A stretch of 64,000 bases of DNA from assembly GCF_003994335.1 (NCBI RefSeq), contig NZ_PNQZ01000013.1, positions 62,001 to 126,000 on the forward strand. Direction: 5' to 3'. Shown one piece after another: positions 3,618-58,064 of this stretch. Source of the DNA: Asaia sp. W19 (GTDB lineage Bacteria; Pseudomonadota; Alphaproteobacteria; Acetobacterales; Acetobacteraceae). Under the pieces are notes generated by a model. It had not been told where the DNA came from. It did not search any database and saw nothing but the letters and a program-made list of their open reading frames with translations. Position 1 is the stretch's first letter, and every line of letters starts with the position of its first letter. The position numbers were made by a program, and so were the translations under genes.

Positions 3618-4255
3618 ACGGCCGGAGTGAGATGAGGGCGTACATCGATCGCTCTCATCCCGGCATTATGGGCCGCCTCGAGCCCCTCTTCCGTATCCTC
3701 AAAAACGAGACAATGAGCGGGAGCGACTTTCAGACGTTCGGCGGCCAGGAGATAGAGATCAGGCGCGGGCTTGCCGCGCTTCACGTCTTCGATCGTGACC
3801 ACCGTATCGAAGAGCTCCAGCAGATCGAGCGTCTGCAGGGTAGACGTCACCGCAGATTTCATCCCCGCTGACGCGACAGCCATCGGCACATGGCCGAATT
3901 GCTCACGCGCAATCGTCGCGGCAAAACTATGCTCGCGCAGCTTGTCCAGATGGTTCTGGTAGAGCAGCTTGCAGCGCGCCAGCAGGGCTGGCCGATCCAA
4001 GATGAGGCCAAAGCTCTGTTCATAAGCGTTGAACAGCTTGTCACTCGACAGCCCGGTCCGAGCAAAATACCAGTCTCGCTCGAGCGTGTAACCCACCTCA
4101 CCCAGCGCCTCCTGAAAGGTCAGGAAATGCACGGGGAGCGTGTCGGCAATCGTCCCGTCACAATCGAAAATGAGCGCATCAAACGTGTGATTGCTCAGGG
4201 TAAATTCGGACGTCGCCGGGGTCGTCCCATCGTCATCGGATATGGCCGCACTCAT
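3608..4255 (-). CDS. HAD-superfamily phosphatase (phosphoglycolate phosphatase / beta-phosphoglucomutase-like)
   Basis: A 215-residue HAD hydrolase. Motif I is at residues 31-38 (DCDGTIAD, nucleophile Asp31 and acid/base Asp33), motif II is Ser129 in VASAG, motif III is Lys162 in RGKPAPD, and motif IV is the EDTEEG segment with Asp187. The helical cap between motifs I and II is the small C1 type typical of sugar-phosphate and phosphoglycolate phosphatases. The substrate cannot be named from sequence. A GGGAGG ribosome binding site precedes the ATG. It lies 17 bases after gloB, so the two are probably cotranscribed. Confidence 0.85.
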   Translation of the reverse strand: MSAAISDDDGTTPATSEFTLSNHTFDALIFDCDGTIADTLPVHFLTFQEALGEVGYTLERDWYFARTGLSSDKLFNAYEQSFGLILDRPALLARCKLLYQNHLDKLREHSFAATIAREQFGHVPMAVASAGMKSAVTSTLQTLDLLELFDTVVTIEDVKRGKPAPDLYLLAAERLKVAPAHCLVFEDTEEGLEAAHNAGMRAIDVRPHLTPAVQN

Positions 4256-4272
4256 GATCGGTCTGCCTCCCT

Positions 4273-4992
4273 TCAGAAATTGTCCTTGGCATGACGCAAC
4301 GCCGCAAATTCGGCCACGTCACGCGCTTTCAAAAACGGATTGGTCTGGCGCTCAACGCCGAGCCTCACCGGGACTGACGCGCGATTTCCCGCGCACAACG
4401 CCTTTACGTCAGCAACGCGCTGCTTCAAGGCCGCGTCATCAGGCGTTTGCGCCAAGGCGAAAGCTGCGTTGGACTCGGTATATTCGTGCCCGCAGCAAAC
4501 GAGCGTTTCGTCTGGGAGCGGCGCAAAACGCTTGAGGCTGTCGAAAAGCTCCTGCGCCGTTCCCTCCAGAAGCCGCCCGCAACCGAGGCTGAACAGCGTG
4601 TCACCGCAAAACAGGGCGGGGACGGATCGGAAGTAGAAGGCGATGTGACCGCGTGCATGACCCGGTGTGGCGATCACCTCACCCAGATCATGCCCGATGG
4701 CGATACGGTCCTCGTCATGAAGCAACAGGTCGAGCGGGGGCAGGCGCGCCTGGTCGGCCTCGGCCCCGGCGATACGCGCGCCGTATTTCTGGCGCAGCGC
4801 CTCGGCCCCGCCAATGTGATCATCATGATGATGGGTCAGGAGAATCAGATCCAGCCGCCCTTCTCCAATCGCGTTCATCACCGGCCCCGACTCACCCGGG
4901 TCAACCACGGCGACGGTGCCGGTCTGAGGATCTTTCAGCAACCACGCGTAATTGTCCCGCGCGAAAGGAATAGCTTTGATTTCGAGGCTCAC
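4273..4992 (-). CDS. gloB: Hydroxyacylglutathione hydrolase (glyoxalase II)
   Basis: A 239-residue metallo-beta-lactamase-fold enzyme that hydrolyses S-lactoylglutathione to D-lactate and glutathione. The metal motif T-H-H-H-D-D-H is at residues 53-59; further ligands are His112 (TPGH), Asp131 (CGDTLF) and His169 (CGHE). Length and C-terminal helical region fit GloB rather than other MBL hydrolases. It is divergent from the methyltransferase gene across about 250 bases. Its product D-lactate could feed the respiratory D-lactate dehydrogenase encoded at 29942-31663, though the two loci are not linked. Confidence 0.93.
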   Translation of the reverse strand: MSLEIKAIPFARDNYAWLLKDPQTGTVAVVDPGESGPVMNAIGEGRLDLILLTHHHDDHIGGAEALRQKYGARIAGAEADQARLPPLDLLLHDEDRIAIGHDLGEVIATPGHARGHIAFYFRSVPALFCGDTLFSLGCGRLLEGTAQELFDSLKRFAPLPDETLVCCGHEYTESNAAFALAQTPDDAALKQRVADVKALCAGNRASVPVRLGVERQTNPFLKARDVAEFAALRHAKDNF

Positions 4993-5240
4993 TATCCTGT
5001 TTTCCTTCTACTTGCTGATTCGGCCTGTTGGACGAAGACTAGCCTTGTTCAGGGGGTAACGTATCCTCACGCCTCTGAGATCACGACATAGGGAGGGGCA
5101 TCCTGCCCGCCCCCTGGCCGTATTCCCCTAACCAACGCATCCAGACGAGCGAGGGATGCGCTTGCCCAGCCTGGGCACCCCTTGCGCCCGTCGTCCCGAC
5201 CGGCCCGGCCCTCTGGCCGTCGAAGCCGGTTCGGTCTAGC

Positions 5241-6044
5241 GTGTTCACCATGCCGAAGCGTATCGCCCAGCCCATTCCACCCGACGCCGCCGGTTTCTAT
5301 GCCAGTCGGCGCGGAGAGCAGGTCACTGCGCTACTGATGGCGCGGCTTGCGCCTCTTCTCCCTGACCCGCGGGGACAGCGCGTCCTGGGGCTGGGGTTCG
5401 CCCAGCCGCTCCTCTCGCAATGGCGCGCACTCAGCGAAGCGAAATGGGTCGCCTCGGCCCAACTAGACACGCCGCTGACGCGCCGTCGCGGGATGATACC
5501 CTCGAGCGTGCCATTCTGGCCCTCCTGCCTGGTAGCGCCCGACTGCCTGCCCTTCGATGATCTGAGCGTCGATCTGGTGCTCATGATGCATGGGCTAGAA
5601 CTGGTCGATCCACAGCCTCTCCTGCGCATCGTCTGGAAGTTGCTGGCCGATCACGGTCGTCTCATTCTGGTCGTCCCCAATCGGACAGGCCTTGCCGCAA
5701 AAGACGATACGCTGCCCTTCGGCCATGGCAGCCCTTTTTCTGCCAGCCAGCTCGATCGCACTCTGCAGCGCGGATTGTTCCGGGCCGAGGCCAACGCAAC
5801 CGCCCTCAGCGCCCCGCTCGGTCTGCTGCCTCTGGGTGACAAGGCCACGCTGATGGCAGACAAGGTCTTTGGCGCTCTGGGGCGCCGCCTTGGCGGGGTG
5901 CATCTCGTGAATGCTTGCAAGGATCTCTATTCCGGCATGCCGGTGGAGGCGGAGCGGGCCACGCTCGGTTTTGCCCGTCGCGTCACCACACTCGCGGGCT
6001 CTGCCGGAAGCTATCAGACGGAACCCGAACGGCCGAAAGCTTGA
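5241..6044 (+). CDS. Class I SAM-dependent methyltransferase-like protein
   Basis: About 264-267 residues. The start is either the GTG at 5241 or the ATG at 5250; neither has a clear ribosome binding site. The Rossmann glycine loop is degenerate (RVLGLGFAQPL). A typical acidic-aromatic strand VDLVLMMHGLELV follows, then the helix-strand WKLLADHGRLILVVPN that is usual in methyltransferase type 11 domains. Such genes commonly sit opposite gloB in alphaproteobacteria. The substrate is unknown. It precedes psd by 31 bases and may share its transcript. Confidence 0.75.
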   Translation: MFTMPKRIAQPIPPDAAGFYASRRGEQVTALLMARLAPLLPDPRGQRVLGLGFAQPLLSQWRALSEAKWVASAQLDTPLTRRRGMIPSSVPFWPSCLVAPDCLPFDDLSVDLVLMMHGLELVDPQPLLRIVWKLLADHGRLILVVPNRTGLAAKDDTLPFGHGSPFSASQLDRTLQRGLFRAEANATALSAPLGLLPLGDKATLMADKVFGALGRRLGGVHLVNACKDLYSGMPVEAERATLGFARRVTTLAGSAGSYQTEPERPKA

Positions 6045-6075
6045 CCCCAAACGCAGGTATCGTAAGACTGCGCTC

Positions 6076-6753
6076 ATGTCCCTGATTCAATCGATCAAAT
6101 CCGTTCTGGCACCGCCGCACCGCGCTGCCCTTCCCTTTCTCGCGCTGACTGGCGGGTTGACCCTGCTCGGCCGCGCGACACCGTGGCGTGCCACGCGGAT
6201 CATCGGCAATCTGGCGCTGGGCGGGTTCGGCTTCTGCCTGTACTTCTTCCGAGACCCGAAGCGTTTTCCGCCTGCGCGCACGGACCTCGCCCTGGCTCCG
6301 GCCGATGGCCGCGTGGTCTCTGTCGAGCTCGCCACGCCCCCTGCCGCGCTGGGCATGGGCAGCGAGCCAGTATGGCGCGTGGCGACCTTCCTCTCGGTTC
6401 TGAACGTGCATATCAACCGCATGCCCGCCGCCGGGACGGTTACCAAGATTGCCTATCATGCGGGGCAGTTCCTCAATGCGAGTCTGGACAAGGCCTCCGA
6501 CCTCAATGAGCGCAACGAGGTTCGGCTGACACTGGAAGACGGTCGCCATATGGCCGTTGTCCAGATTGCCGGTCTCATCGCGCGCCGTATTGTCTGTTAC
6601 GTGGATGAGGGCAGTGTGGTCGAGCCGGGTGATCGCTTCGGCCTGATCCGGTTCGGCTCGCGTACCGACCTGTACCTGCCGCCCGGCGTGACCCCGCTGG
6701 TTAGCACTGGCCAGATCATGGTTGGTGGTGAAACCGTCATGGCCCATCTCTGA
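6076..6753 (+). CDS. psd: Phosphatidylserine decarboxylase proenzyme, short form
   Basis: Converts phosphatidylserine to phosphatidylethanolamine at the inner membrane. The ATG at 6076 gives 225 residues, typical of the short proenzyme class common in alphaproteobacteria and archaea. Two membrane-seeking segments lie in the first 60 residues. The self-cleavage site is Gly194-Ser195 in RFGSR, where the serine becomes the pyruvoyl group. The NVHINRMP segment (110-117) is conserved in this family. It is followed after 13 bases by pssA, so substrate-making and product-making enzymes are adjacent. Confidence 0.95.
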   Translation: MSLIQSIKSVLAPPHRAALPFLALTGGLTLLGRATPWRATRIIGNLALGGFGFCLYFFRDPKRFPPARTDLALAPADGRVVSVELATPPAALGMGSEPVWRVATFLSVLNVHINRMPAAGTVTKIAYHAGQFLNASLDKASDLNERNEVRLTLEDGRHMAVVQIAGLIARRIVCYVDEGSVVEPGDRFGLIRFGSRTDLYLPPGVTPLVSTGQIMVGGETVMAHL

Positions 6754-6766
6754 AACGCCCCTGACG

Positions 6767-7678
6767 ATGTCCGAAGCGCGCCCCGCACCCATGGCCGAAC
6801 TTCCGGTGCAGAGCCCTGGCGATGAGGGCACAGCTCCCCTGCGAGCAGGACGCAAGCGCCGTCGCCTGAGGCGTATCCGCCCCCGCCGTGTGCGCGTGCG
6901 CGGTCCGTCCTTCAACCGGCTCATCCCGAATCTGCTGACCATGCTCGGGCTGTGCGCCGGGCTCAGCGGCATGCGCTACGGGCTTGAGCAGCAATTTGCC
7001 TATGCCGCAGCAGCCCTGGTGATTGCAGCCTGTATCGATGGGCTCGATGGGCGCATTGCCCGGCTTTTGCATGGTACGTCGCGTTTCGGCGCCGAGTTCG
7101 ATTCGCTTTCCGATTTCGTCTGCTTCGGCGTGGCGCCGCCCTTTCTGCTCTATCTGTGGACCCTGCATGAAAATGGCGGACGCTACGCCTTTGTGCCCTG
7201 CATCTTCTTTACGGTCTGCATGGCCCTGCGTCTGGCCCGGTTCAATGCGAGCCTCGATGACGACGAGAAACCGGAATATTCCTATAGCTTCTTCACCGGC
7301 GTTCCCGCGCCCGCCGGGGCGGGCATCGTTCTCTTTCCCATCTTTCTGGGGCTGGAGGCGGAGAAGATGCACTGGCCGCTCATCGACGGTCTGGCGCGCT
7401 CTCCCCTTCTGGCCGCAGGCGCTCTCATCCTGACGGCGGCCCTGCTTGTCTCGACGCTGCCGGTCTGGTCTTTCAAGAACTTCAAGATCGCCTCACGCTA
7501 TGTGCTGCCGCTTATGCTCGGCACACTGCTCTACGCCGCGATCCTGCTGGCCGATCCTTGGCTTGCCCTGGCGGCAGCGGGTGTCCTCTATCTGCTGATG
7601 CTGCCTTTCAGCCGACGCAGCTTCCATCGCCTGAAGGCTCAGGCCGAGGCGCTTTCGGAAGATATCCCCGAAGCCTGA
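6767..7678 (+). CDS. pssA: CDP-diacylglycerol--serine O-phosphatidyltransferase
   Basis: Makes phosphatidylserine from CDP-diacylglycerol and serine. The complete CDP-alcohol phosphatidyltransferase signature is present and correctly spaced: Asp91, Asp94-Gly95, Ala98-Arg99, Gly108, Asp112 and Asp116. About 303 residues with several membrane helices. The first 45 residues are unusually arginine-rich (RRRLRRIRPRRVRVR region) and probably lie on the cytoplasmic face. The ATG at 6767 starts 13 bases after psd stops. The psd-pssA pair forms a two-step phosphatidylethanolamine unit. Confidence 0.94.
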   Translation: MSEARPAPMAELPVQSPGDEGTAPLRAGRKRRRLRRIRPRRVRVRGPSFNRLIPNLLTMLGLCAGLSGMRYGLEQQFAYAAAALVIAACIDGLDGRIARLLHGTSRFGAEFDSLSDFVCFGVAPPFLLYLWTLHENGGRYAFVPCIFFTVCMALRLARFNASLDDDEKPEYSYSFFTGVPAPAGAGIVLFPIFLGLEAEKMHWPLIDGLARSPLLAAGALILTAALLVSTLPVWSFKNFKIASRYVLPLMLGTLLYAAILLADPWLALAAAGVLYLLMLPFSRRSFHRLKAQAEALSEDIPEA

Positions 7679-7702
7679 ACCGCGCCGGGAGAAAGGGGCG
7701 GA

Positions 7703-7726
7703 TCAGGGGGGCGATGCCCTCCCTGA
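7703..7726. terminator. Hairpin between convergent pssA and receptor gene
   Basis: Arms 7703-7712 and 7716-7726 pair over ten positions with one bulged base and a three-base loop. It sits between two convergent genes, so it could serve both strands. No U-tract is visible, so strength is uncertain. Confidence 0.45.
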
Positions 7727-7737
7727 CGAGGCCGGGC

Positions 7738-10356
7738 TCAGAAAGCAAGCTCGACCTGTCCGCCAAATTGACGCGCCTCATTGTAATAGCCCTGCAGGCC
7801 CGTCGTAACGCCCAGCGTCTTGAAATATACATGCTGCTCGGCAAACAGGTTACGCGCCCAGAGCGAGAACGTGGCCTTACTGCCGGTATTCCCCAGCCGC
7901 ACATTGGACACCGCCACACGCCCATTGACGATCAGGCCGCTATCCCCTTTGGGCTGATAGACATTTTTCGGGTTTCCGGTGCCAAGATAGACCGGGTCGG
8001 TCGTGTTGGCATAATAGCCGCTATCGATATTCCCATCGAGATGCGCGAGCACGGTAAAGCCCTGGAACGGCCGCACGTAATCCACCTGAAAGCTCCCCGA
8101 ATGCGCCGGCGTATAGCTCTGGTAGATCGGCACCAGCATCGGGCTGACCACGCCGATCGAGTTCGGATAGGGGTTCGCGGTCGGAGGGATATGGACATAG
8201 TTATAGGCGTAGGAGAACCCGATTGTCAGGTAGCGCAACGGGGTGACATTCAGCTCCGCTTCGACACCACTCAAATCGCCATGGCCGGGCGCGTTGATGG
8301 TCGAGGTCGTCGTGCGCGTCGTCAGCTGATTACCGATTTGGTAAGGTCGGCTGAAGTCAACCTGGATGTCTTTGTAATCCCCCCAATACCCCGCAACATT
8401 GAAACGCGCGCGGTGATCGAGAAATTCGGTCTTGGAGCCGACTTCGAACATCGAGACCGATTCAGGGCCGAAGGCTTCGTAATCCTGCGCGCGTGAATTG
8501 GCACCACCCGGCTTGTAGCCAGTACTCCATTTCCCATAGAGCAGCACATGTCGGGTCAGGTCGCCGCTGATTTCGAGCAACGGATCAACACGCGACCATC
8601 CGGCACCGAAATCGATCGGGCCCGAGACGCCCGCCGTATTCACGGGAGCCTTGTTATTCACCGTGGTCAGTGTGCCCTGCTTGCCGTCATGCGACCAGCG
8701 CAGCCCCGCAGTCAGGTGCAGGGCATCGTGCAGCACGGGCGGGGTATAGACGGCGTTACCATAGACACCCCAGCTCTTGGACGTCACATGGCTGGCGCGA
8801 TCGATGGGTTGAAGGCTCCAGTCATCATAGGCCGGGCCGGAAAGCAGCTTGTAGGCACTGCCCGCCGCATCGGTGAACTGGTTGGTGTAGAAGGCCTGCG
8901 CATTATCGGAGGCATGCTCGCGATAATAGATAAAGCCACCCTGGTATTTCAGGCGCTTGGTATGCCCAAAGGCCTGGATTTCCTGACTGATCTGGTTCTG
9001 CCAGAATCCCGCGAGCGAGTTACGCGCAAAGTTCATGCCGAGGAAATTGCCCGAGGTATTGGACATACTGCCTGAAGCCATGCCGTTATCGAACTGGCTC
9101 TGACTGAGGGAGCGATAAGCCGTGATCGAACGAAACGCCAGATATTGGGGTATCGCCTTATAGTCGAGCGTCATGCGGTGCCCGCTATTTTTCCCGATGC
9201 TCGGCCGCTCGGGCACGCCGATATTGGCCTCTTTGGCGCGCGCAGTTTGTAAGGTCGCGAGTTTGGCGAGCTTGTTCGACCCGCCTTTCAGCAACTGCAT
9301 CCAGAGCGTGGTCGTGCTGTCATAGGAATTGTCATAGGCATAATCGGCGGAAAAATTATCGACCGGACGATAGAGCGCCTCAACATGCACGCCATGCTTG
9401 TCATACTGGTTGAACCCGCCCGTATCCGGCAGCGGATTCGAGACAAGGGGCGAGCGATGCGCAGTGACCGCATCGACCTTGATGGCGAGATCGTGAAAGG
9501 CGGGCAGATCAAGATGCAACTCGCCCTTGCTGCTGCTGTAATTACCGAAACCGCCCACCAGGCGCATTCCGAATTTTCCGGTTGGCTTGCGGGTAATGAT
9601 GTTGAGCGCACCAGCCTCGGTATTACGCCCGAAAAGCGTCCCTTGCGGGCCCTTGAGTACCTCCATACTCTCGACATCGAACAAGGCGGTACCCAGAGCC
9701 TGAGGACGCGCGACATAGACGCCATCGATATACACGCCCACGCCCTGGTCTCGTGCGGGCTGGTTGCTGTCTCCGAGAACGCCGACGCCGCGAATATTCA
9801 CGACAAGTGCTGAATTACGCCCCGAGAACTGGGCGATACGCAGCGAGGGGATGGAGCCGTCACCCAGATCGACAAGCGAAACGACATGACGATTGGCAAG
9901 TTGTTTGGCACTGAAAACCGTGATCGATGCCGGATCTTTCTGGACGTTGCGCCCATGACCGGTGCCGGTCACGCTGATGCTTTCTGGCGTCGAAACATGC
10001 GCTGCGTGCTTCTTTGCCGCCAGATGTGCCGCTTTCGATGGGGGGGCTGCTGCGACCTGCACCGGGTCTTTCGCAGCGCCAACGGTCGTTTCCTGCCCGG
10101 CAGCACCCCGGCGGCTGGCCGGATGACGTCTGGTTTTTCTGGGAACCTCACCCCGACGAACAGATCCGCCGATCATATCCTGGGGGGCGCCCCTCCCGGG
10201 AGGGGCACTGACTGAATCTGCCTTTTCTGCGCGACCCGATGCAATTCCAGTAGATGGGTCGCCCTGCCCTGCACTTCCCTGCAGGTCAGCGGCAAAGGCC
10301 GAGCCGGTACAGCAAAGAAAAGTGACCACAAGGCACAGTCTCTTACCTCTCAACAC
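7738..10356 (-). CDS. TonB-dependent outer-membrane receptor
   Basis: About 872 residues. The GTG at 10356 is the likely start: a strong CAGGAGAGAG ribosome binding site lies just upstream, and the protein then begins with a good signal peptide (LCLVVTFLCCTGSAFA, cleavage near residue 22). A low-complexity Ala/Arg/Pro-rich linker of about 100 residues follows, then a TonB-box-like ESISVTGTG near 125-133, a plug domain (IRGVGV, YIDGVYV, LKGPQGTLFGRNTEAGALNI) and the beta-barrel ending in Phe. No STN domain, sigma factor or anti-sigma gene is adjacent. The ligand cannot be predicted; the plug resembles siderophore or carbohydrate-type receptors. Confidence 0.92.
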   Translation of the reverse strand: MLRGKRLCLVVTFLCCTGSAFAADLQGSAGQGDPSTGIASGRAEKADSVSAPPGRGAPQDMIGGSVRRGEVPRKTRRHPASRRGAAGQETTVGAAKDPVQVAAAPPSKAAHLAAKKHAAHVSTPESISVTGTGHGRNVQKDPASITVFSAKQLANRHVVSLVDLGDGSIPSLRIAQFSGRNSALVVNIRGVGVLGDSNQPARDQGVGVYIDGVYVARPQALGTALFDVESMEVLKGPQGTLFGRNTEAGALNIITRKPTGKFGMRLVGGFGNYSSSKGELHLDLPAFHDLAIKVDAVTAHRSPLVSNPLPDTGGFNQYDKHGVHVEALYRPVDNFSADYAYDNSYDSTTTLWMQLLKGGSNKLAKLATLQTARAKEANIGVPERPSIGKNSGHRMTLDYKAIPQYLAFRSITAYRSLSQSQFDNGMASGSMSNTSGNFLGMNFARNSLAGFWQNQISQEIQAFGHTKRLKYQGGFIYYREHASDNAQAFYTNQFTDAAGSAYKLLSGPAYDDWSLQPIDRASHVTSKSWGVYGNAVYTPPVLHDALHLTAGLRWSHDGKQGTLTTVNNKAPVNTAGVSGPIDFGAGWSRVDPLLEISGDLTRHVLLYGKWSTGYKPGGANSRAQDYEAFGPESVSMFEVGSKTEFLDHRARFNVAGYWGDYKDIQVDFSRPYQIGNQLTTRTTTSTINAPGHGDLSGVEAELNVTPLRYLTIGFSYAYNYVHIPPTANPYPNSIGVVSPMLVPIYQSYTPAHSGSFQVDYVRPFQGFTVLAHLDGNIDSGYYANTTDPVYLGTGNPKNVYQPKGDSGLIVNGRVAVSNVRLGNTGSKATFSLWARNLFAEQHVYFKTLGVTTGLQGYYNEARQFGGQVELAF

Positions 10357-54302: not shown

Positions 54303-57300
54303 TCAGGCGCAGAACCTGGGTGCCTCGATAATAGGGTCGACGCGGTAAGGAACCGTGCCTGTTACCTCGATATCGAGCAGCGCGGGCACCGTCGCTGTCA
54401 CGGAAGGCAGGTTCAGAAGCGCATAGCCTTCCGTCCAGCGCCCCAGTTCACAAAGCTCCGCAACCCAGCCCTCACGCTCGACCCCATCCAGATGGGTCCT
54501 GATCGGCAGCGCACGATCGGCAATCTGCAGGCTCACTTCACCGATACACACACCAAAGCGACGACGATCATCGACCCAGGGACCGATGAAGTCACAAGGC
54601 CGCGCCTGATGGGAAGCCAGACGTACAAACCGGACACCAGGCGGCAGGCTAAAGCGGCGACGTGCACCTTCGATCGCGATCGGATCGATGCGGGTTCCAT
54701 TCTCGAGGATCAGGCAGAAATCGGGATCCTCCGTCATGGCACCCGATCCCTGCAGCTTGCTCTCGAAGCCGAGCGACAACGCTCGCGCGACGAGTTTCTC
54801 ATGGACAGGCTGTACGAAATCGCAGGCCACATTCAGTGGAAGAGCCGCGTCAGAATGCCAGTCCCCCGGGATCTCCATGATACGTCCGGGGATCGAGGCC
54901 TGATGGGTGAACTGGCGTCGATGGCCGGTATTCAGATAGCTTTCCGTTGGGGTGTTATTGGCCAGGATGATGGCATGCCGCTCCATCTCGATATGGTAGT
55001 AGTGATAGATCGGCCGGGTGGTGTCGTAATAGATGCTCGTGCCGTTCACCAGCATACGCAGCGGAATGAATGCTCCCTCGAAAGGCATGCAATGTTCGCT
55101 CGTCATGTACAGATCGCGCGAGGGCACGCCGTCGGCCAGCGCATTCTTGCGGATACATACCGGATATCCGGCCTGATCGAGCGGCAGGTAGGGCTGATGC
55201 TGGTTCTGGCGCGAACCGATCCAGGAGATTTTCTGCGTGAACCGATGCTCCCCATCGAGACAAATGACCTCATCCCCGATCTGCAGATTTTCGACCGCAA
55301 CCTCTCCCTGGGCAGTCTGGATAAGCGTCCCGGCGAGAAAGCAGGGATCGAGCGCCACATGATCCAGCATGAGCACCCCGCCCTGCCCGACGACGGGCGA
55401 TGTCAGGGTTGCACCCGGCCCCGCCGAGAGGATCGCTCCGCTGCCCACCGAGGGAGACTGGACGTAGCCACCAGACGCCACAGTCACACGATCGACGTTG
55501 TATCCGCTATTGAACCAGGTGTCGTTCATGGAACTGCCCCCGGCTGCAATGGTCATGGGTACGGAGTTGAACTGGTTGCCGAGTGTGGTCCCCCCATCAA
55601 GCACGGAGACCGTGCCGTTGCGGATATAGGAGGCCATCAGCGTACCACCATTGGAAACATAGACGCTCACCAGATAGCCGGAGAGGTTCAAGGCGGTCGC
55701 ACCACTCATGACATAGAGGGTCGCGCCGTTACCCAGAGCGACGGAGTCCGAAACGACTTTTGTGCCGCTCTGATAGACTGTTTGACCCCACTCGTCCGCG
55801 ACGGCCGACCATGTTCCGGTAAGGGTTACCGCGCCGTTTGGTTCTGGTGCGGGCGGCACCCAGACATCGCCATTCATGGGAGAGGACGTAACGAAGACCC
55901 CCGCAGAGTCGACACTCACGTTGCCAAGATTGACGCCCGACTGAACGACCATCGATCCGCCATTGCCAATAGTGACGCCCTCCAGCGTTGCGCCAGCATA
56001 GACGGAGGTCACATCCACATTATAGCCGCTGTTATACCAGTCATCAGCCACTGACGAGGCGCCGGAGGAGATCGTGACAGGCGTGGAATTGAAGCCATTA
56101 TTGATGGACGATGCGCCCGAGGCCAGCGTCACACTGCCATTGGCGATACGGGAAGCCGTCAGAGTGCCCCCGCTCTGGACGGTCACGGTTATCGCAGTCC
56201 CGTAGATCGAGGACGCCGTTGCACCGGGACCGACAGTTAGAAAGGCGCTTTGTGCCATGGCGACGGGCCAGCTGAAACTGGTGGTTCCACTGGTATAGAC
56301 TGTCGCCCCCTGATCATAGACGGCCGTCCATCTGCCTGCGAGGAGCGGCGTGTTGTCGTAGCTGCTTCCGTCAATCATCATACCCGTGAAATATTGGGAG
56401 CCGGAGACCAGAGTCCCCCCCGACGTCGCACGATACTGGTCGACCGTGCCGCTCGCAAAAGACGCCGAACCGCCCTTGTAGACGGTGATATCGCTACCCT
56501 GCGCACCGGAGCTGACGGTGACGGAGCCACCCTGATCGACCACGGCCCCCCAGACCGAGGCACCGGACTGGAAAACCGCCGCGTCGACATTGTAGCCGCT
56601 ATTGTACCAGCGATCTGCCAATGATGAGGCGCCGCTGCCATAGGTGGTCGTCGTGGAATTGAGATAATTGCCCGTGGTCGAGCCACCGCTGGCAACGGTG
56701 AGGGTGCCGTTCTCGATGGTCGATTGATAGAGAGCCCCCCCGTTCAGGACCTGGACTGTGGTGGCAACGGCCTTGATCCCCGCAACCTGAGCGCCGCTGC
56801 TGATATACAGTGTCGCCCCTGACGCGAAGGTTACAGGCCACTGCACCGAAACCGAGCCGCTCCTGAAAACGGTTGTCCCATCGGAGTCTATTGCTGACCA
56901 GACACCGCTCAGGACGCGGGTGTTATCATAGCTGTTGTCGCCTACCAGAATTCCGGAATAGGTCATGGTTCCGGAAACGACCTTGCCGCCCGGGGCCGCC
57001 GTATAATTCTCGACACTGCCTGCGCTGAAAGTGGCCGTACCGGTACCCGAGACATAAATGTCATTCCCGGTCGCGCCTGTCTGGACCGACAGACTTCCAC
57101 CATTCAGAACCTGGGCACCACTGATGCTTGCTCCAGACTGAAACGTCGCGACATTGATATCGTAGCCGCTATTATACCAGACGTCGTTGAATGAGCTGCC
57201 CCCGCTCGCAACAGTCGTTGCGGTAGAGTTGAGAGCATTATTGGTCGAAGCCCCCCCTGCAGCGATCCTGACCGAACCGTTGATGATCACGGACGAGTCC

Positions 57301-58064
57301 AGATTACCCCCCGCCTCGATCACAACACTGACGAGATAGCCCGAGAGCTGAGACGCCACGGCCCCGTTCTTGATGTAAAGGACAGCGCTCGTACCAAGCA
57401 CGGCCGGACCGGACACGATCACGGTGCCACTTTGATAGACTGTACCTCCATCAAGGTTCACCGCCGACCATGTCCCGCTCAGAACGCTCGCATTGACAAG
57501 TTCAGTGCCGTTGACGGTAGAGCCGGAATAAAATGCTGTGCCCGACTGAACGTAGCCACCCGACATTGCCGTGAAACCATCGGTCGTTCCGGAGGCAAGG
57601 ATCGCTGACCCACCCGCCGAAACAACAACTCCTGCGGCACTGCCACCACTGGAAACGCGCAGATACCCTCCCTTGAGGATCTGGCTCTGCATGATCGATG
57701 CTCCGGCGGCAACGGTCACCCAATTGGCGTCATACCCGCTATTGAACCAGGTATCATTATAGGATTGAGCGCCGGAGCCGAGGGTCGTCTCGGTCGAATT
57801 CAGATTGTTGGTCTGGATGATCCCACCCGAGGCCACTGTGAGCGTCGAGTCATCGAGTTGGGAGTTTGCCAGCACACCCCCAGCAGCGACGGAAACACTC
57901 CCCTTCACAGCTGTCAGGCCATCGACAAAAGCCCCACTCGTGATCTTGAGCGACGCGCCGCTCCCGAGTGAAACCTGATCACGCACCCGAGCCGTGCCGC
58001 TCACGTAAACGGTTGCGTAACCATCAGATACAGCGGACCACGTTCCGCGCAATACGTAAGCCAA
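54303..58064 (-). CDS. Giant AIDA-repeat protein with C-terminal Hint_2 domain
   Basis: 1253 residues from a TTG at 58064, with GGGAG upstream. No signal peptide and no autotransporter barrel are visible. Residues 7-900 are beta-helix-like Gly/Ser/Val repeats of AIDA type, built from five modules; the first four start exactly 190 residues apart (7, 197, 387, 577), the fifth at 750. Each carries GTWSAV and a W-Y/F-NSGY motif. A Hint_2 (hedgehog/intein-like) domain starts at Cys908 (CFLAGTLIQT) and has TSEHCMPFEGAF (His991) and YYHIEMERHAIILANN. About 140 residues of a second conserved region (SLPPGVRFVRLAS, DDRRRFGVCIG) end the protein. It is probably extracellular, perhaps self-cleaving; this is inferred. 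Confidence 0.85.
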   Translation of the reverse strand: MAYVLRGTWSAVSDGYATVYVSGTARVRDQVSLGSGASLKITSGAFVDGLTAVKGSVSVAAGGVLANSQLDDSTLTVASGGIIQTNNLNSTETTLGSGAQSYNDTWFNSGYDANWVTVAAGASIMQSQILKGGYLRVSSGGSAAGVVVSAGGSAILASGTTDGFTAMSGGYVQSGTAFYSGSTVNGTELVNASVLSGTWSAVNLDGGTVYQSGTVIVSGPAVLGTSAVLYIKNGAVASQLSGYLVSVVIEAGGNLDSSVIINGSVRIAAGGASTNNALNSTATTVASGGSSFNDVWYNSGYDINVATFQSGASISGAQVLNGGSLSVQTGATGNDIYVSGTGTATFSAGSVENYTAAPGGKVVSGTMTYSGILVGDNSYDNTRVLSGVWSAIDSDGTTVFRSGSVSVQWPVTFASGATLYISSGAQVAGIKAVATTVQVLNGGALYQSTIENGTLTVASGGSTTGNYLNSTTTTYGSGASSLADRWYNSGYNVDAAVFQSGASVWGAVVDQGGSVTVSSGAQGSDITVYKGGSASFASGTVDQYRATSGGTLVSGSQYFTGMMIDGSSYDNTPLLAGRWTAVYDQGATVYTSGTTSFSWPVAMAQSAFLTVGPGATASSIYGTAITVTVQSGGTLTASRIANGSVTLASGASSINNGFNSTPVTISSGASSVADDWYNSGYNVDVTSVYAGATLEGVTIGNGGSMVVQSGVNLGNVSVDSAGVFVTSSPMNGDVWVPPAPEPNGAVTLTGTWSAVADEWGQTVYQSGTKVVSDSVALGNGATLYVMSGATALNLSGYLVSVYVSNGGTLMASYIRNGTVSVLDGGTTLGNQFNSVPMTIAAGGSSMNDTWFNSGYNVDRVTVASGGYVQSPSVGSGAILSAGPGATLTSPVVGQGGVLMLDHVALDPCFLAGTLIQTAQGEVAVENLQIGDEVICLDGEHRFTQKISWIGSRQNQHQPYLPLDQAGYPVCIRKNALADGVPSRDLYMTSEHCMPFEGAFIPLRMLVNGTSIYYDTTRPIYHYYHIEMERHAIILANNTPTESYLNTGHRRQFTHQASIPGRIMEIPGDWHSDAALPLNVACDFVQPVHEKLVARALSLGFESKLQGSGAMTEDPDFCLILENGTRIDPIAIEGARRRFSLPPGVRFVRLASHQARPCDFIGPWVDDRRRFGVCIGEVSLQIADRALPIRTHLDGVEREGWVAELCELGRWTEGYALLNLPSVTATVPALLDIEVTGTVPYRVDPIIEAPRFCA
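55365..58046 (-). repeat. Five large protein modules with a 570-bp period
   Basis: Modules: residues 7-196 (58046-57477), 197-386 (57476-56907), 387-576 (56906-56337), 577-749 (56336-55818) and 750-900 (55817-55365). The first three are exactly 190 codons each, the fourth 173. Positions of the NSGY motif repeat at 108, 298, 488, 678 and 852, again 190 apart except the last. Codons differ between copies, so the period is kept at protein level, not by recent DNA duplication. Confidence 0.85.

What the first reader, a model, noticed from the sequence alone, without database searches (positions are those of the whole stretch)
54303..58064. Hint_2 domain on a modular beta-repeat surface protein
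A 900-residue AIDA-type passenger is joined directly to a Hint_2 domain (Cys908 first residue, His991 in TSEHC, YYHIEMERHAIILAN) with a second conserved C-terminal region. No signal peptide, no beta-barrel and no secretion genes are adjacent. Hint domains can cut the chain at the N-terminal Cys; if so, the whole repeat part would be released or attached to a nucleophile after export. Export route, cleavage and anchoring are all undescribed here.
Basis: partly seen in the sequence, partly recalled or inferred. Interest (0 to 1): 0.8.

Follow-up and report, generated by a model that had tools for sequence, protein, structure and literature searches.

The report
Hint-tailed repeat protein, acetic-acid bacteria
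A large repetitive, probably exported bacterial protein ends in a self-processing domain related to that of animal hedgehog proteins plus a second conserved domain of unknown function, and many acetic-acid bacteria carry several to over twenty such genes, which may be a way to cut or attach surface proteins that nobody has tested.

Summary
The ORF at 54303-58064 (-) codes for 1253 aa: five 160-190-residue beta-repeat modules without any cysteine, then a Hint_2 domain (PF13403, E 1.5e-35, residues 907-1046) starting at Cys908, then a conserved ~190-residue C-terminal domain (CTD) without a Pfam match. It is one of about 25 copies in this genome (nearest named hit: Asaia) and of a large family in acetic-acid bacteria. 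Across 101 aligned copies Cys1, Thr81, His84 and Glu134 never vary. Glu134-Ser/Thr135 sit where inteins have His-Asn, so the domain should form an N-terminal thioester but not splice, like B-type bacterial intein-like domains and hedgehog. New beyond the finding: the constant unit is Hint_2 plus CTD, a hedgehog-'Hog'-like pair; TibC-type O-heptosyltransferase genes sit beside several family members while the genus nearly lacks autotransporter barrels; a type I secretion adaptor is in 137 of 138 sampled carriers. Best explanation: heptosylation (some members), type I export, then Cys908-mediated cleavage that releases or transfers the passenger. Cleavage, export and acceptor are untested. Hint-bearing secreted proteins and B-type autocleavage are already in print, so this is a new variant of a known kind.

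The parts
54303..58064 (-). whole gene, 1253 aa, TTG start at 58064
   Evidence: N-terminus resembles that of at least four paralogues
55347..58052 (-). passenger: five beta-repeat modules (residues 5-194, 195-384, 385-574, 575-747, 748-906), no Cys, calculated pI 3.9
   Evidence: weak TIGR04415 match
54927..55346 (-). Hint_2 domain, residues 907-1046, nucleophile Cys908
   Evidence: PF13403 E 1.5e-35; AF2 model of residues 908-1253 mean pLDDT 91, matches BIL 2lwy, 6tmm/6y75, inteins and hedgehog 1at0
55341..55343 (-). Cys908, presumed N-S acyl shift nucleophile
   Evidence: Cys in 101 of 101 aligned copies
55092..55103 (-). block B T-S-E-H (Thr988, His991)
   Evidence: Thr and His 101 of 101
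54939..54944 (-). Glu1041-Ser1042, in the place of the intein His-Asn
   Evidence: Glu 101 of 101, Ser 90 / Thr 11; model residue 135 is the last one aligned in many intein rows
54306..54872 (-). C-terminal domain (CTD), residues 1065-1253: N-terminal helix then beta strands; RPxDxxGPxxDDRRxxGV, GW and RWT motifs
   Evidence: no Pfam family at E<=0.1 for this member and three single-member matches among 66

Best explanation
The gene encodes a non-classically exported, probably surface-destined, beta-solenoid protein whose last 346 residues form a constant processing module. Steps: (1) inferred: in the cytoplasm, members next to a TibC-type enzyme are O-heptosylated on their strand-loop-strand repeats; whether the window's own protein is a substrate is not known. 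(2) inferred: the chain, which has no recognisable signal peptide and no beta-barrel, leaves through the type I secretion system. (3) inferred from shown residue conservation and predicted fold: the Hint_2 domain performs an N-S acyl shift at Cys908 and, lacking the His-Asn needed for Asn cyclisation, stops at the thioester; this is resolved by hydrolysis (release of the passenger) or by an outside nucleophile (attachment). (4) speculative: the CTD, which follows each of the 25 near-complete Hint_2 domains of this genome, positions the module or its nucleophile, as the SRR/ARR does in Hog domains. Shown: architecture, paralogue expansion, invariant catalytic set, loss of His-Asn, linkage of some members to heptosyltransferases. 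Not shown: steps 1 to 4 themselves.
For: Hint_2 over cut-off. Cys1, Thr81, His84, Glu134 in 101 of 101 and His123 in 99 of 101 copies; the 76 named loci were chosen by a pattern that covers only positions 92-101. AF2 model of 908-1253, pLDDT 91.2, pTM 0.84, matches the Clostridium BIL domain 2lwy (Foldseek E 3.9e-5; Z 12.1), Tetrahymena BIL2 6y75 (Z 12.2), many inteins, and hedgehog 1at0 (Z 10.3, rmsd 2.7, 118 aligned). The unit is constant (332-360 aa in 76 named loci) while the part before it, counted from the preceding stop, runs from 135 to 1224 aa in the 72 that are not cut by the contig. Passengers are nearly Cys-free: 35 Cys in 34,893 residues, 76 of 98 with none, against 13.5 per 1000 in Hint+CTD; 2 of 98 have a moderately hydrophobic N-terminus (start taken roughly as the first Met). 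TibC-type genes: 9 of 9 genomes of the genus; 19 of the 26 near-full-length rows I used lie within 10 kb of a listed Hint_2 domain. Autotransporter barrel PF03797: over cut-off in 1 of 9 genomes of the genus. Type I adaptor TIGR01843 in 137 of the 138 Hint_2-positive genomes among 180 of the family. In another family (f19) 4 of the 10 Hint_2 proteins I could read (of 11 loci) carry 7-15 RTX-like GGxGxD motifs before the Hint domain.
Against: No adaptor match within the flanks (8 kb or less) of any of 76 named Hint_2 loci. The adaptor is in 38 of 42 Hint_2-negative genomes too, so the co-occurrence (Fisher p 0.011, no correction for kinship) is weak; one genome with 12 Hint_2 matches (G102) shows no adaptor at E<=1e-45 (9 of its 23 candidates were scored) and a broken ABC orthologue. 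A type I signal cannot be recognised with these tools, and RTX repeats are absent here. The window gene has no heptosyltransferase beside it, and only 8 of 76 named loci do, one of them in pieces. The residue before Cys is Val in 52 of 98, which is expected to make a thioester slow to hydrolyse (recalled chemistry). No cleavage has been seen.
Confidence: 0.5

Rival explanations
1. Hog-like transfer: the CTD binds an acceptor (a surface glycan, LPS or lipid hydroxyl, or an amine) and the Hint thioester is transferred to it, so the passenger becomes covalently anchored at its C-terminus and the Hint-CTD is shed.
For: Each of the 25 near-complete Hint_2 domains of this genome is followed by a CTD match, and 47 of 52 plasmid best places found with the CTD are annotated 'Hint domain-containing protein'. 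The CTD is as strictly conserved as the Hint (Gly254, Asp259, Arg261, Gly264, Gly292, Trp293, Trp303, Thr304 in 101 of 101). Val before Cys disfavours plain hydrolysis (chemistry recalled). Analogies in print: Hint plus ARR/SRR Hog proteins (PMC2362128, passages) and the clip-and-link module of FrpC (PMC3034196, passages).
Against: The CTD has no detectable relation to a binding domain: Foldseek 0 matches at E<=0.001, best Z 5.8, within the noise range. Hint_2 proteins of family f19, and L154 of this family, have no room for the CTD. A CTD-like match occurs in two genomes without a Hint_2 match (G017, G086), not followed up. No acceptor is known.
Confidence: 0.2
2. The Hint_2-CTD is now a structural cap or export/anchoring signal and does not cut the chain in vivo.
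For: I found no report of processing of these proteins in the listings of my paper searches. Some Hint-fold domains are inactive (recalled).
Against: Strict conservation of Cys1, Thr81, His84 and His123 (101, 101, 101, 99 of 101) across diverged copies (own-genome copies are 27-43% identical to the window's) is what an active site shows.
Confidence: 0.2
3. A toxin-like system in which Hint releases a C-terminal effector, as in polymorphic toxins, with the CTD as effector.
For: Modular, expanded family with a Hint next to a C-terminal domain.
Against: In polymorphic toxins the C-terminus varies (recalled); here the CTD is the constant part and the N-terminus varies. No immunity-like gene among the 10 neighbours scanned.
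Confidence: 0.04
4. Ordinary autotransporter (type Va) that lost its barrel, i.e. a decaying gene.
For: AIDA/SLS-like passenger with a weak TIGR04415 match; no barrel.
Against: Intact frame, conserved active site and constant Hint-CTD across the family; barrels over cut-off in only 1 of 9 genomes of the genus.
Confidence: 0.03

Closest known systems
B-type bacterial intein-like (BIL) domains / Pfam Hint_2 PF13403
   Same: Hint fold, N-terminal Cys, block B TxxH, block F His, C-terminal His-Asn motif missing; N-terminal autocleavage reported for the B type (PMC7765530, passages). That Hint_2 equals B-type BIL is my inference.
   Different: Here with an extra conserved CTD, at the C-terminus of beta-repeat passengers in acetic-acid bacteria; activity not tested.
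Hog domains of hedgehog and hedgehog-related proteins (Hint + SRR/ARR)
   Same: Constant Hint plus C-terminal partner domain joined to diverse N-termini (PMC2362128, passages); Hint fold Z 10.3 to 1at0.
   Different: No detectable homology of the CTD to an SRR; cholesterol is not expected as acceptor in these bacteria (recalled); adduct unknown; bacterial, without recognisable signal peptide.
AIDA-I / TibA self-associating autotransporters with BAHT heptosyltransferases
   Same: Strand-loop-strand-like passengers; TibC-family enzymes encoded beside several family members (enzyme family in PMC4358343, passages).
   Different: No signal peptide, no beta-barrel; Hint_2-CTD stands where the barrel would be; no such enzyme beside the window gene.
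RTX proteins with Hedgehog/Intein homology, and the FrpC clip-and-link module
   Same: Type I exported proteins with self-processing modules; nine predicted RTX proteins noted as weakly Hint-like (PMC3034196, passages).
   Different: No RTX repeats here; the FrpC module cuts an Asp-Pro bond by a different chemistry.

Membership tests
Pfam Hint_2 (PF13403) | profile score over the curated cut-off | tested here: met
   123.1 bits against 28.4, positions 1-146 of 147
B-type BIL domain | intein motifs A, B and F present | tested here: met
   Cys1 101, Thr81/His84 101, His123 99 of 101; Hint fold
B-type BIL domain | C-terminal intein motif (His-Asn) absent | tested here: met
   Glu134 101 of 101, Ser/Thr135 in all; position equated through the model alignment
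B-type BIL domain | autocleavage at its N-terminus | not testable with these tools
   needs expression
Intein | penultimate His, terminal Asn and C-extein nucleophile | tested here: not met
   His-Asn replaced by Glu-Ser/Thr
Hog domain (Hint + SRR/ARR) | Hint fold at the start of the C-terminal module | tested here: met
   1at0 Z 10.3, rmsd 2.7, 118 aligned
Hog domain (Hint + SRR/ARR) | partner domain homologous to SRR/ARR | tested here: inconclusive
   CTD alone: no Foldseek match at E<=0.001, best Z 5.8
Hog domain (Hint + SRR/ARR) | transfer of the N-terminal part to a sterol or other nucleophile | not testable with these tools
   needs mass spectrometry
AIDA-type autotransporter (type Va) | strand-loop-strand repeat passenger | tested here: inconclusive
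   TIGR04415 19.5 bits, cut-off 30, E 7.6e-4
AIDA-type autotransporter (type Va) | signal peptide | tested here: not met
   no hydrophobic N-terminal stretch (hydropathy only)
AIDA-type autotransporter (type Va) | C-terminal beta-barrel PF03797 | tested here: not met
   no hit at E<=1
Type I secretion substrate | C-terminal uncleaved signal recognised by ABC/adaptor | not testable with these tools
   no predictor; adaptor and ABC present in the genome
Type I secretion substrate of RTX kind | RTX nonapeptide repeats PF00353 | tested here: not met
   no hit; 3 GGxGxD motifs in 101 family proteins without the window's

The most novel reading that the evidence does not exclude
A bacterial counterpart of hedgehog processing: Hint_2 plus CTD is a self-contained, transferable tail that cuts off diverse, sometimes heptosylated, signal-less beta-solenoid adhesins after export and ligates their C-termini to a surface acceptor chosen by the CTD. 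It would be a sortase-like covalent display system for Gram-negative bacteria, expanded to 9-27 Hint_2 matches per genome in this genus.
Probability: 0.18. Interest if true: 0.92.

Novelty: new variant of a known kind. Interest (0 to 1): 0.58.

Why it matters
'Hint domain-containing protein' is a frequent, functionally empty annotation in acetic-acid bacteria (138 of 180 sampled genomes of the family have Hint_2, with up to 20 scored per genome). If the module cuts, it is a natural N-terminal thioester generator on exported proteins, and if it ligates, it is covalent surface display in Gram-negatives, a role I know mainly from sortases in Gram-positives (recalled). The pairing of signal-less SLS-like proteins with heptosyltransferases in a genus almost without autotransporter barrels also poses a direct question: how is an AIDA-like protein exported without its barrel? 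Tractable laboratory strains exist (a copy lies on a plasmid of Gluconobacter oxydans 621H).

Tried and rejected
Rejected: protein splicing (His-Asn replaced); type Va autotransport (no signal peptide or barrel); type II secretion as the common route (PMC4596401, passages, lists a type II system in Asaia bogorensis but none in Acetobacter pasteurianus and Gluconobacter oxydans, which do have family members; and no signal peptide); polymorphic-toxin reading (the C-terminus is the constant part).

Led nowhere: direct PDB sequence relatives of the CTD (best 6shd, E 0.77); Pfam for the CTD; fold of the CTD (weak matches to beta-sandwich domains of glycoside hydrolases and unrelated chains, Z at most 5.8; a family not listed is not excluded); a 412-residue ORF with a CTD-like stretch in the genome (E 0.49) looked spurious; adaptor genes near Hint_2 loci (0 of 76); a literature search for the domain name alone returned mostly the unrelated HINT2 protein; biofilm paper PMC5588039 (passages) does not mention Hint. 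The CTD is not wholly confined to Hint_2 carriers: 111 of 180 genomes have a CTD match, including two (G017, G086) without a Hint_2 match; the places were not printed, so I could not read them. In G000 four further CTD matches with E<1e-10 lie in frames of 100-183 residues (C179, C15, C189:3502, C205); I take them for broken copies but read only the Hint part of C205.

Limits: genome G000 has 8.08% estimated contamination, so some copies may be foreign; C155 and C215 look like one gene twice (same domain sequence), so the 101 aligned copies include at least one duplicate. The 76 named loci come from the best 80 of 553 matches, i.e. near relatives. The TibC distance count used 26 of the 34 TibC rows (partial and weak rows dropped) and 61 hand-copied Hint_2 rows, whose list was itself cut off; the loci are orthologous between genomes and therefore not independent. 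The 2x2 table takes the two draws of 180 genomes to be the same set; where both lists print handles they agree, but 22 Hint_2-negative genomes were not printed. Own-genome fragment C205 was dropped from the alignment. The RTX-motif count had no shuffled control.
Full report
The observation. The ORF at 54303-58064 on the minus strand encodes 1253 residues from a TTG start. The start is credible: a GGGAG lies 8 nt upstream, and at least four paralogues (C190, C35:385428, C162, C201:117065) begin with a Met some six residues before the same G-x-W motif. Pfam finds one significant family, Hint_2 (PF13403), at residues 907-1046, E 1.5e-35, 123.1 bits against a cut-off of 28.4. The passenger consists of five modules of 160-190 residues, 35-47% identical pairwise, with no cysteine at all and a calculated pI of 3.9. 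'AIDA-type' is weakly supported for this very protein: TIGR04415 strand-loop-strand repeat, E 7.6e-4, 19.5 bits, below the cut-off of 30. There is no barrel hit and no hydrophobic N-terminus (hydropathy only). Ten neighbouring ORFs gave hits to PhzF, EipB-like, class II tRNA synthetase, Rieske/oxidoreductase, SurE, DUF2076, glycyl-tRNA synthetase beta, DUF202, LysR and FtsW/RodA families and none to a secretion family.

It is one of a large family. The genome (G000, 3.94 Mb, 8.08% estimated contamination) has 27 PF13403 matches: 25 near-complete domains, the window's among them, of which C155 and C215 look like one gene twice, and two pieces of one broken copy (C205). All 9 genomes of the genus have 9 to 27 matches. 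138 of 180 sampled genomes of the family have one. Over the class it is 17 of 289 genomes: 4 of this family and 4 of one other, f19, have 6 to 13 matches each (13 is a scoring cap), the other 9 have 1 or 2, most of them weak. The nearest named relatives are acetic-acid bacteria, best Asaia siamensis at 47% identity, so the window probably comes from Asaia (inference). On plasmids 199 records match the Hint-CTD region; of the 15 listed, 13 are annotated 'Hint domain-containing protein'.

The constant unit. In 76 named loci the part from Cys onward is 332-360 residues; the part before it, counted from the preceding stop codon, is 135-1224 residues in the 72 not cut by the contig. Aligning 101 copies (window, 24 from G000, 76 named) gives Cys1, Thr81, His84, Glu134 in 101 of 101, His123 in 99, position 135 Ser in 90 and Thr in 11; in the CTD Gly254, Asp259, Arg261, Gly264, Gly292, Trp293, Trp303 and Thr304 are 101 of 101. 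The search pattern that found the named loci covers only positions 92-101, so these columns were not selected for. The 76 are, however, the closest of 553.

Structure. AlphaFold2 on residues 908-1253 (34-row alignment A2) gives pLDDT 91.2 and pTM 0.84. Foldseek finds 13 PDB chains at E<=0.001, all intein-like (BIL) domains or inteins, led by 2lwy. The VIA-align second look gives 6y75 Z 12.2, 2lwy Z 12.1, hedgehog 1at0 Z 10.3 (rmsd 2.7, 118 aligned) and the Vint domain 8r2c Z 9.9. In many intein rows the last aligned model residue is 135 while the chain runs to, for example, 454 in PI-SceI or 440 in Mtu RecA; that these are the terminal Asn is recalled. So Glu134-Ser/Thr135 stand where inteins have His-Asn. 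Splicing by Asn cyclisation is therefore not expected; an N-terminal thioester is. The CTD modelled alone (66 rows, pLDDT 88.3) is a helix followed by beta strands with no convincing relative: no Foldseek match at E<=0.001, best Z 5.8, no Pfam, PDB profile search best E 0.77.

Is the CTD part of the unit? In G000 each of the 25 near-complete Hint_2 domains is followed by a CTD match; four further CTD matches with E<1e-10 lie in short frames and are probably broken copies. On plasmids the CTD alone finds 52 records; the best place of 47 is annotated as a Hint protein, and the other five read 'outer membrane protein', 'hypothetical protein', kdpA or none. Outside this group the CTD is not universal: the 10 f19 proteins that I could read (of 11 loci), and L154 of this family and L139, have only 192-209 residues from Cys to the end, too few for it. 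Over 180 genomes 111 have a CTD match, many of them weak, and two of these (G017, G086) have no Hint_2 match, so the CTD may have a life of its own there.

Glycosylation. TibC-type O-heptosyltransferases (TIGR04414) are over cut-off in 9 of 9 genomes of the genus. In G000 one such gene lies immediately upstream of a Hint_2 gene on the same strand (L051:8231-9496 and 4101-8213); another lies about 3 kb from the first Hint_2 domain of a tandem pair (C203), a third one ORF away (L050, an FkbM-type methyltransferase between). Of the 26 near-full-length TibC rows used, 19 lie within 10 kb of a listed Hint_2 domain, 6 more at 14-22 kb and one has none listed on its contig. Two neighbouring full-length TibC rows beside two Hint_2 domains recur in 7 of 9 genomes, so these are not independent events. 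Among the named loci 8 of 76 have a TibC-like match within the flank held, one of them in pieces, in six genera. The Autotransporter barrel PF03797 is over cut-off in 1 of 9 genomes of the genus. So at least some Hint_2 proteins are the likely substrates of these enzymes. The window gene has none beside it.

Export. One adaptor over the TIGR01843 cut-off exists in each of the 9 genomes; in G000 it sits with an ABC transporter (ABC_membrane + ABC_tran), a Sel1-repeat protein, two glycosyltransferases and a ChW-domain protein, some 13-15 kb from the nearest Hint_2 gene. Across 180 genomes: Hint_2 with adaptor 137, Hint_2 without 1, neither 4, adaptor only 38; Fisher p 0.011 without correction for kinship. 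The one exception, G102, has a broken orthologue of the ABC gene, while the four adaptor-less genomes without Hint_2 have only distant ABC proteins (36% identity or less). No adaptor lies within the flanks of any of the 76 named loci. In f19 4 of 10 readable Hint_2 proteins carry 7-15 RTX-like motifs before the Hint (no shuffled control), which ties Hint_2 to type I passengers there; such motifs are all but absent from the acetic-acid set (3 in 101 proteins: 25 of G000 including the broken C205, and 76 named). Passengers are nearly Cys-free (35 in 34,893 residues; 76 of 98 with none) against 13.5 Cys per 1000 in Hint-CTD. Together this favours type I export, moderately.

What is in print. PMC7765530 (passages): B-type BIL domains share intein motifs except the C-terminal one and can cleave their N-terminus. 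PMC3034196 (passages): nine predicted RTX proteins with weak Hedgehog/Intein homology might autoprocess; FrpC has a clip-and-link module. PMC2362128 (passages): Hog = Hint + SRR/ARR with diverse N-termini; a further bacterial Hint subgroup noted. PMC12487129 (passages): Hint and RTX domains over-represented in strongly responding Rhodobacteraceae. PMC11999647 (passages): a Hint-domain gene of unknown function among the mutations of a cellulose producer. PMC4358343 (passages): TibC/BAHT family. I found no paper on the Hint_2-CTD proteins of acetic-acid bacteria, their CTD, or their pairing with heptosyltransferases in the listings of searches; the library lacks most subscription papers, and the original BIL papers were not read.

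Verdict. Confirmed observation, partly supported interpretation. Most likely the Hint_2 domain cuts at Cys908 after export; whether it then releases or attaches the passenger is open. It works like a B-type BIL and, with its CTD, resembles a Hog module, but membership in Hog is not shown. New variant of a known kind.

Noticed in passing
L048:3335-14217 (G000 C35, about 361.3-372.2 kb): The type I ABC and adaptor genes lie in one same-strand run with a Sel1-repeat protein, a GT2-GT1 fusion, a ChW-domain protein and a GT4 glycosyltransferase, which suggests secretion coupled to glycosylation.
   Followed up: partly
L052:7628-15709 and L053:7259-9001: AMP-binding enzymes and a 2115-residue protein that looks by eye like a polyketide synthase lie beside the TibC / Hint_2 tandem locus (contigs C197 and C203).
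   Followed up: no
L162 (Cupriavidus sp. plasmid NZ_CP017750.1, 188721-207182): A Hint-CTD protein in a betaproteobacterium lies next to type II secretion (gsp) genes, with a filamentous haemagglutinin gene nearby.
   Followed up: no
G102 C1:67869-69826: A genome with 12 Hint_2 matches and no adaptor at the threshold has a broken orthologue of the type I ABC gene.
   Followed up: partly
L010 (C205), C179:2037-2552, C15:10889-11281: Apparently broken or truncated Hint_2 / CTD copies, which point to birth-and-death turnover of the family.
   Followed up: no
genomes G017 and G086: CTD-like profile matches (E 3e-5 and 1.4e-8) in genomes without any Hint_2 match; what they are fused to could reveal the CTD's function.
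   Followed up: no
L140, after the Hint_2 domain: A Hint_2 protein of another family (f13) carries about 120 extra residues that look unlike the CTD, so the partner domain may be exchangeable.
   Followed up: no
rows (G082, G124, G157): Some Hint_2 domains lie in open frames of 2900-4570 residues, possibly giant adhesins with the same tail.
   Followed up: no
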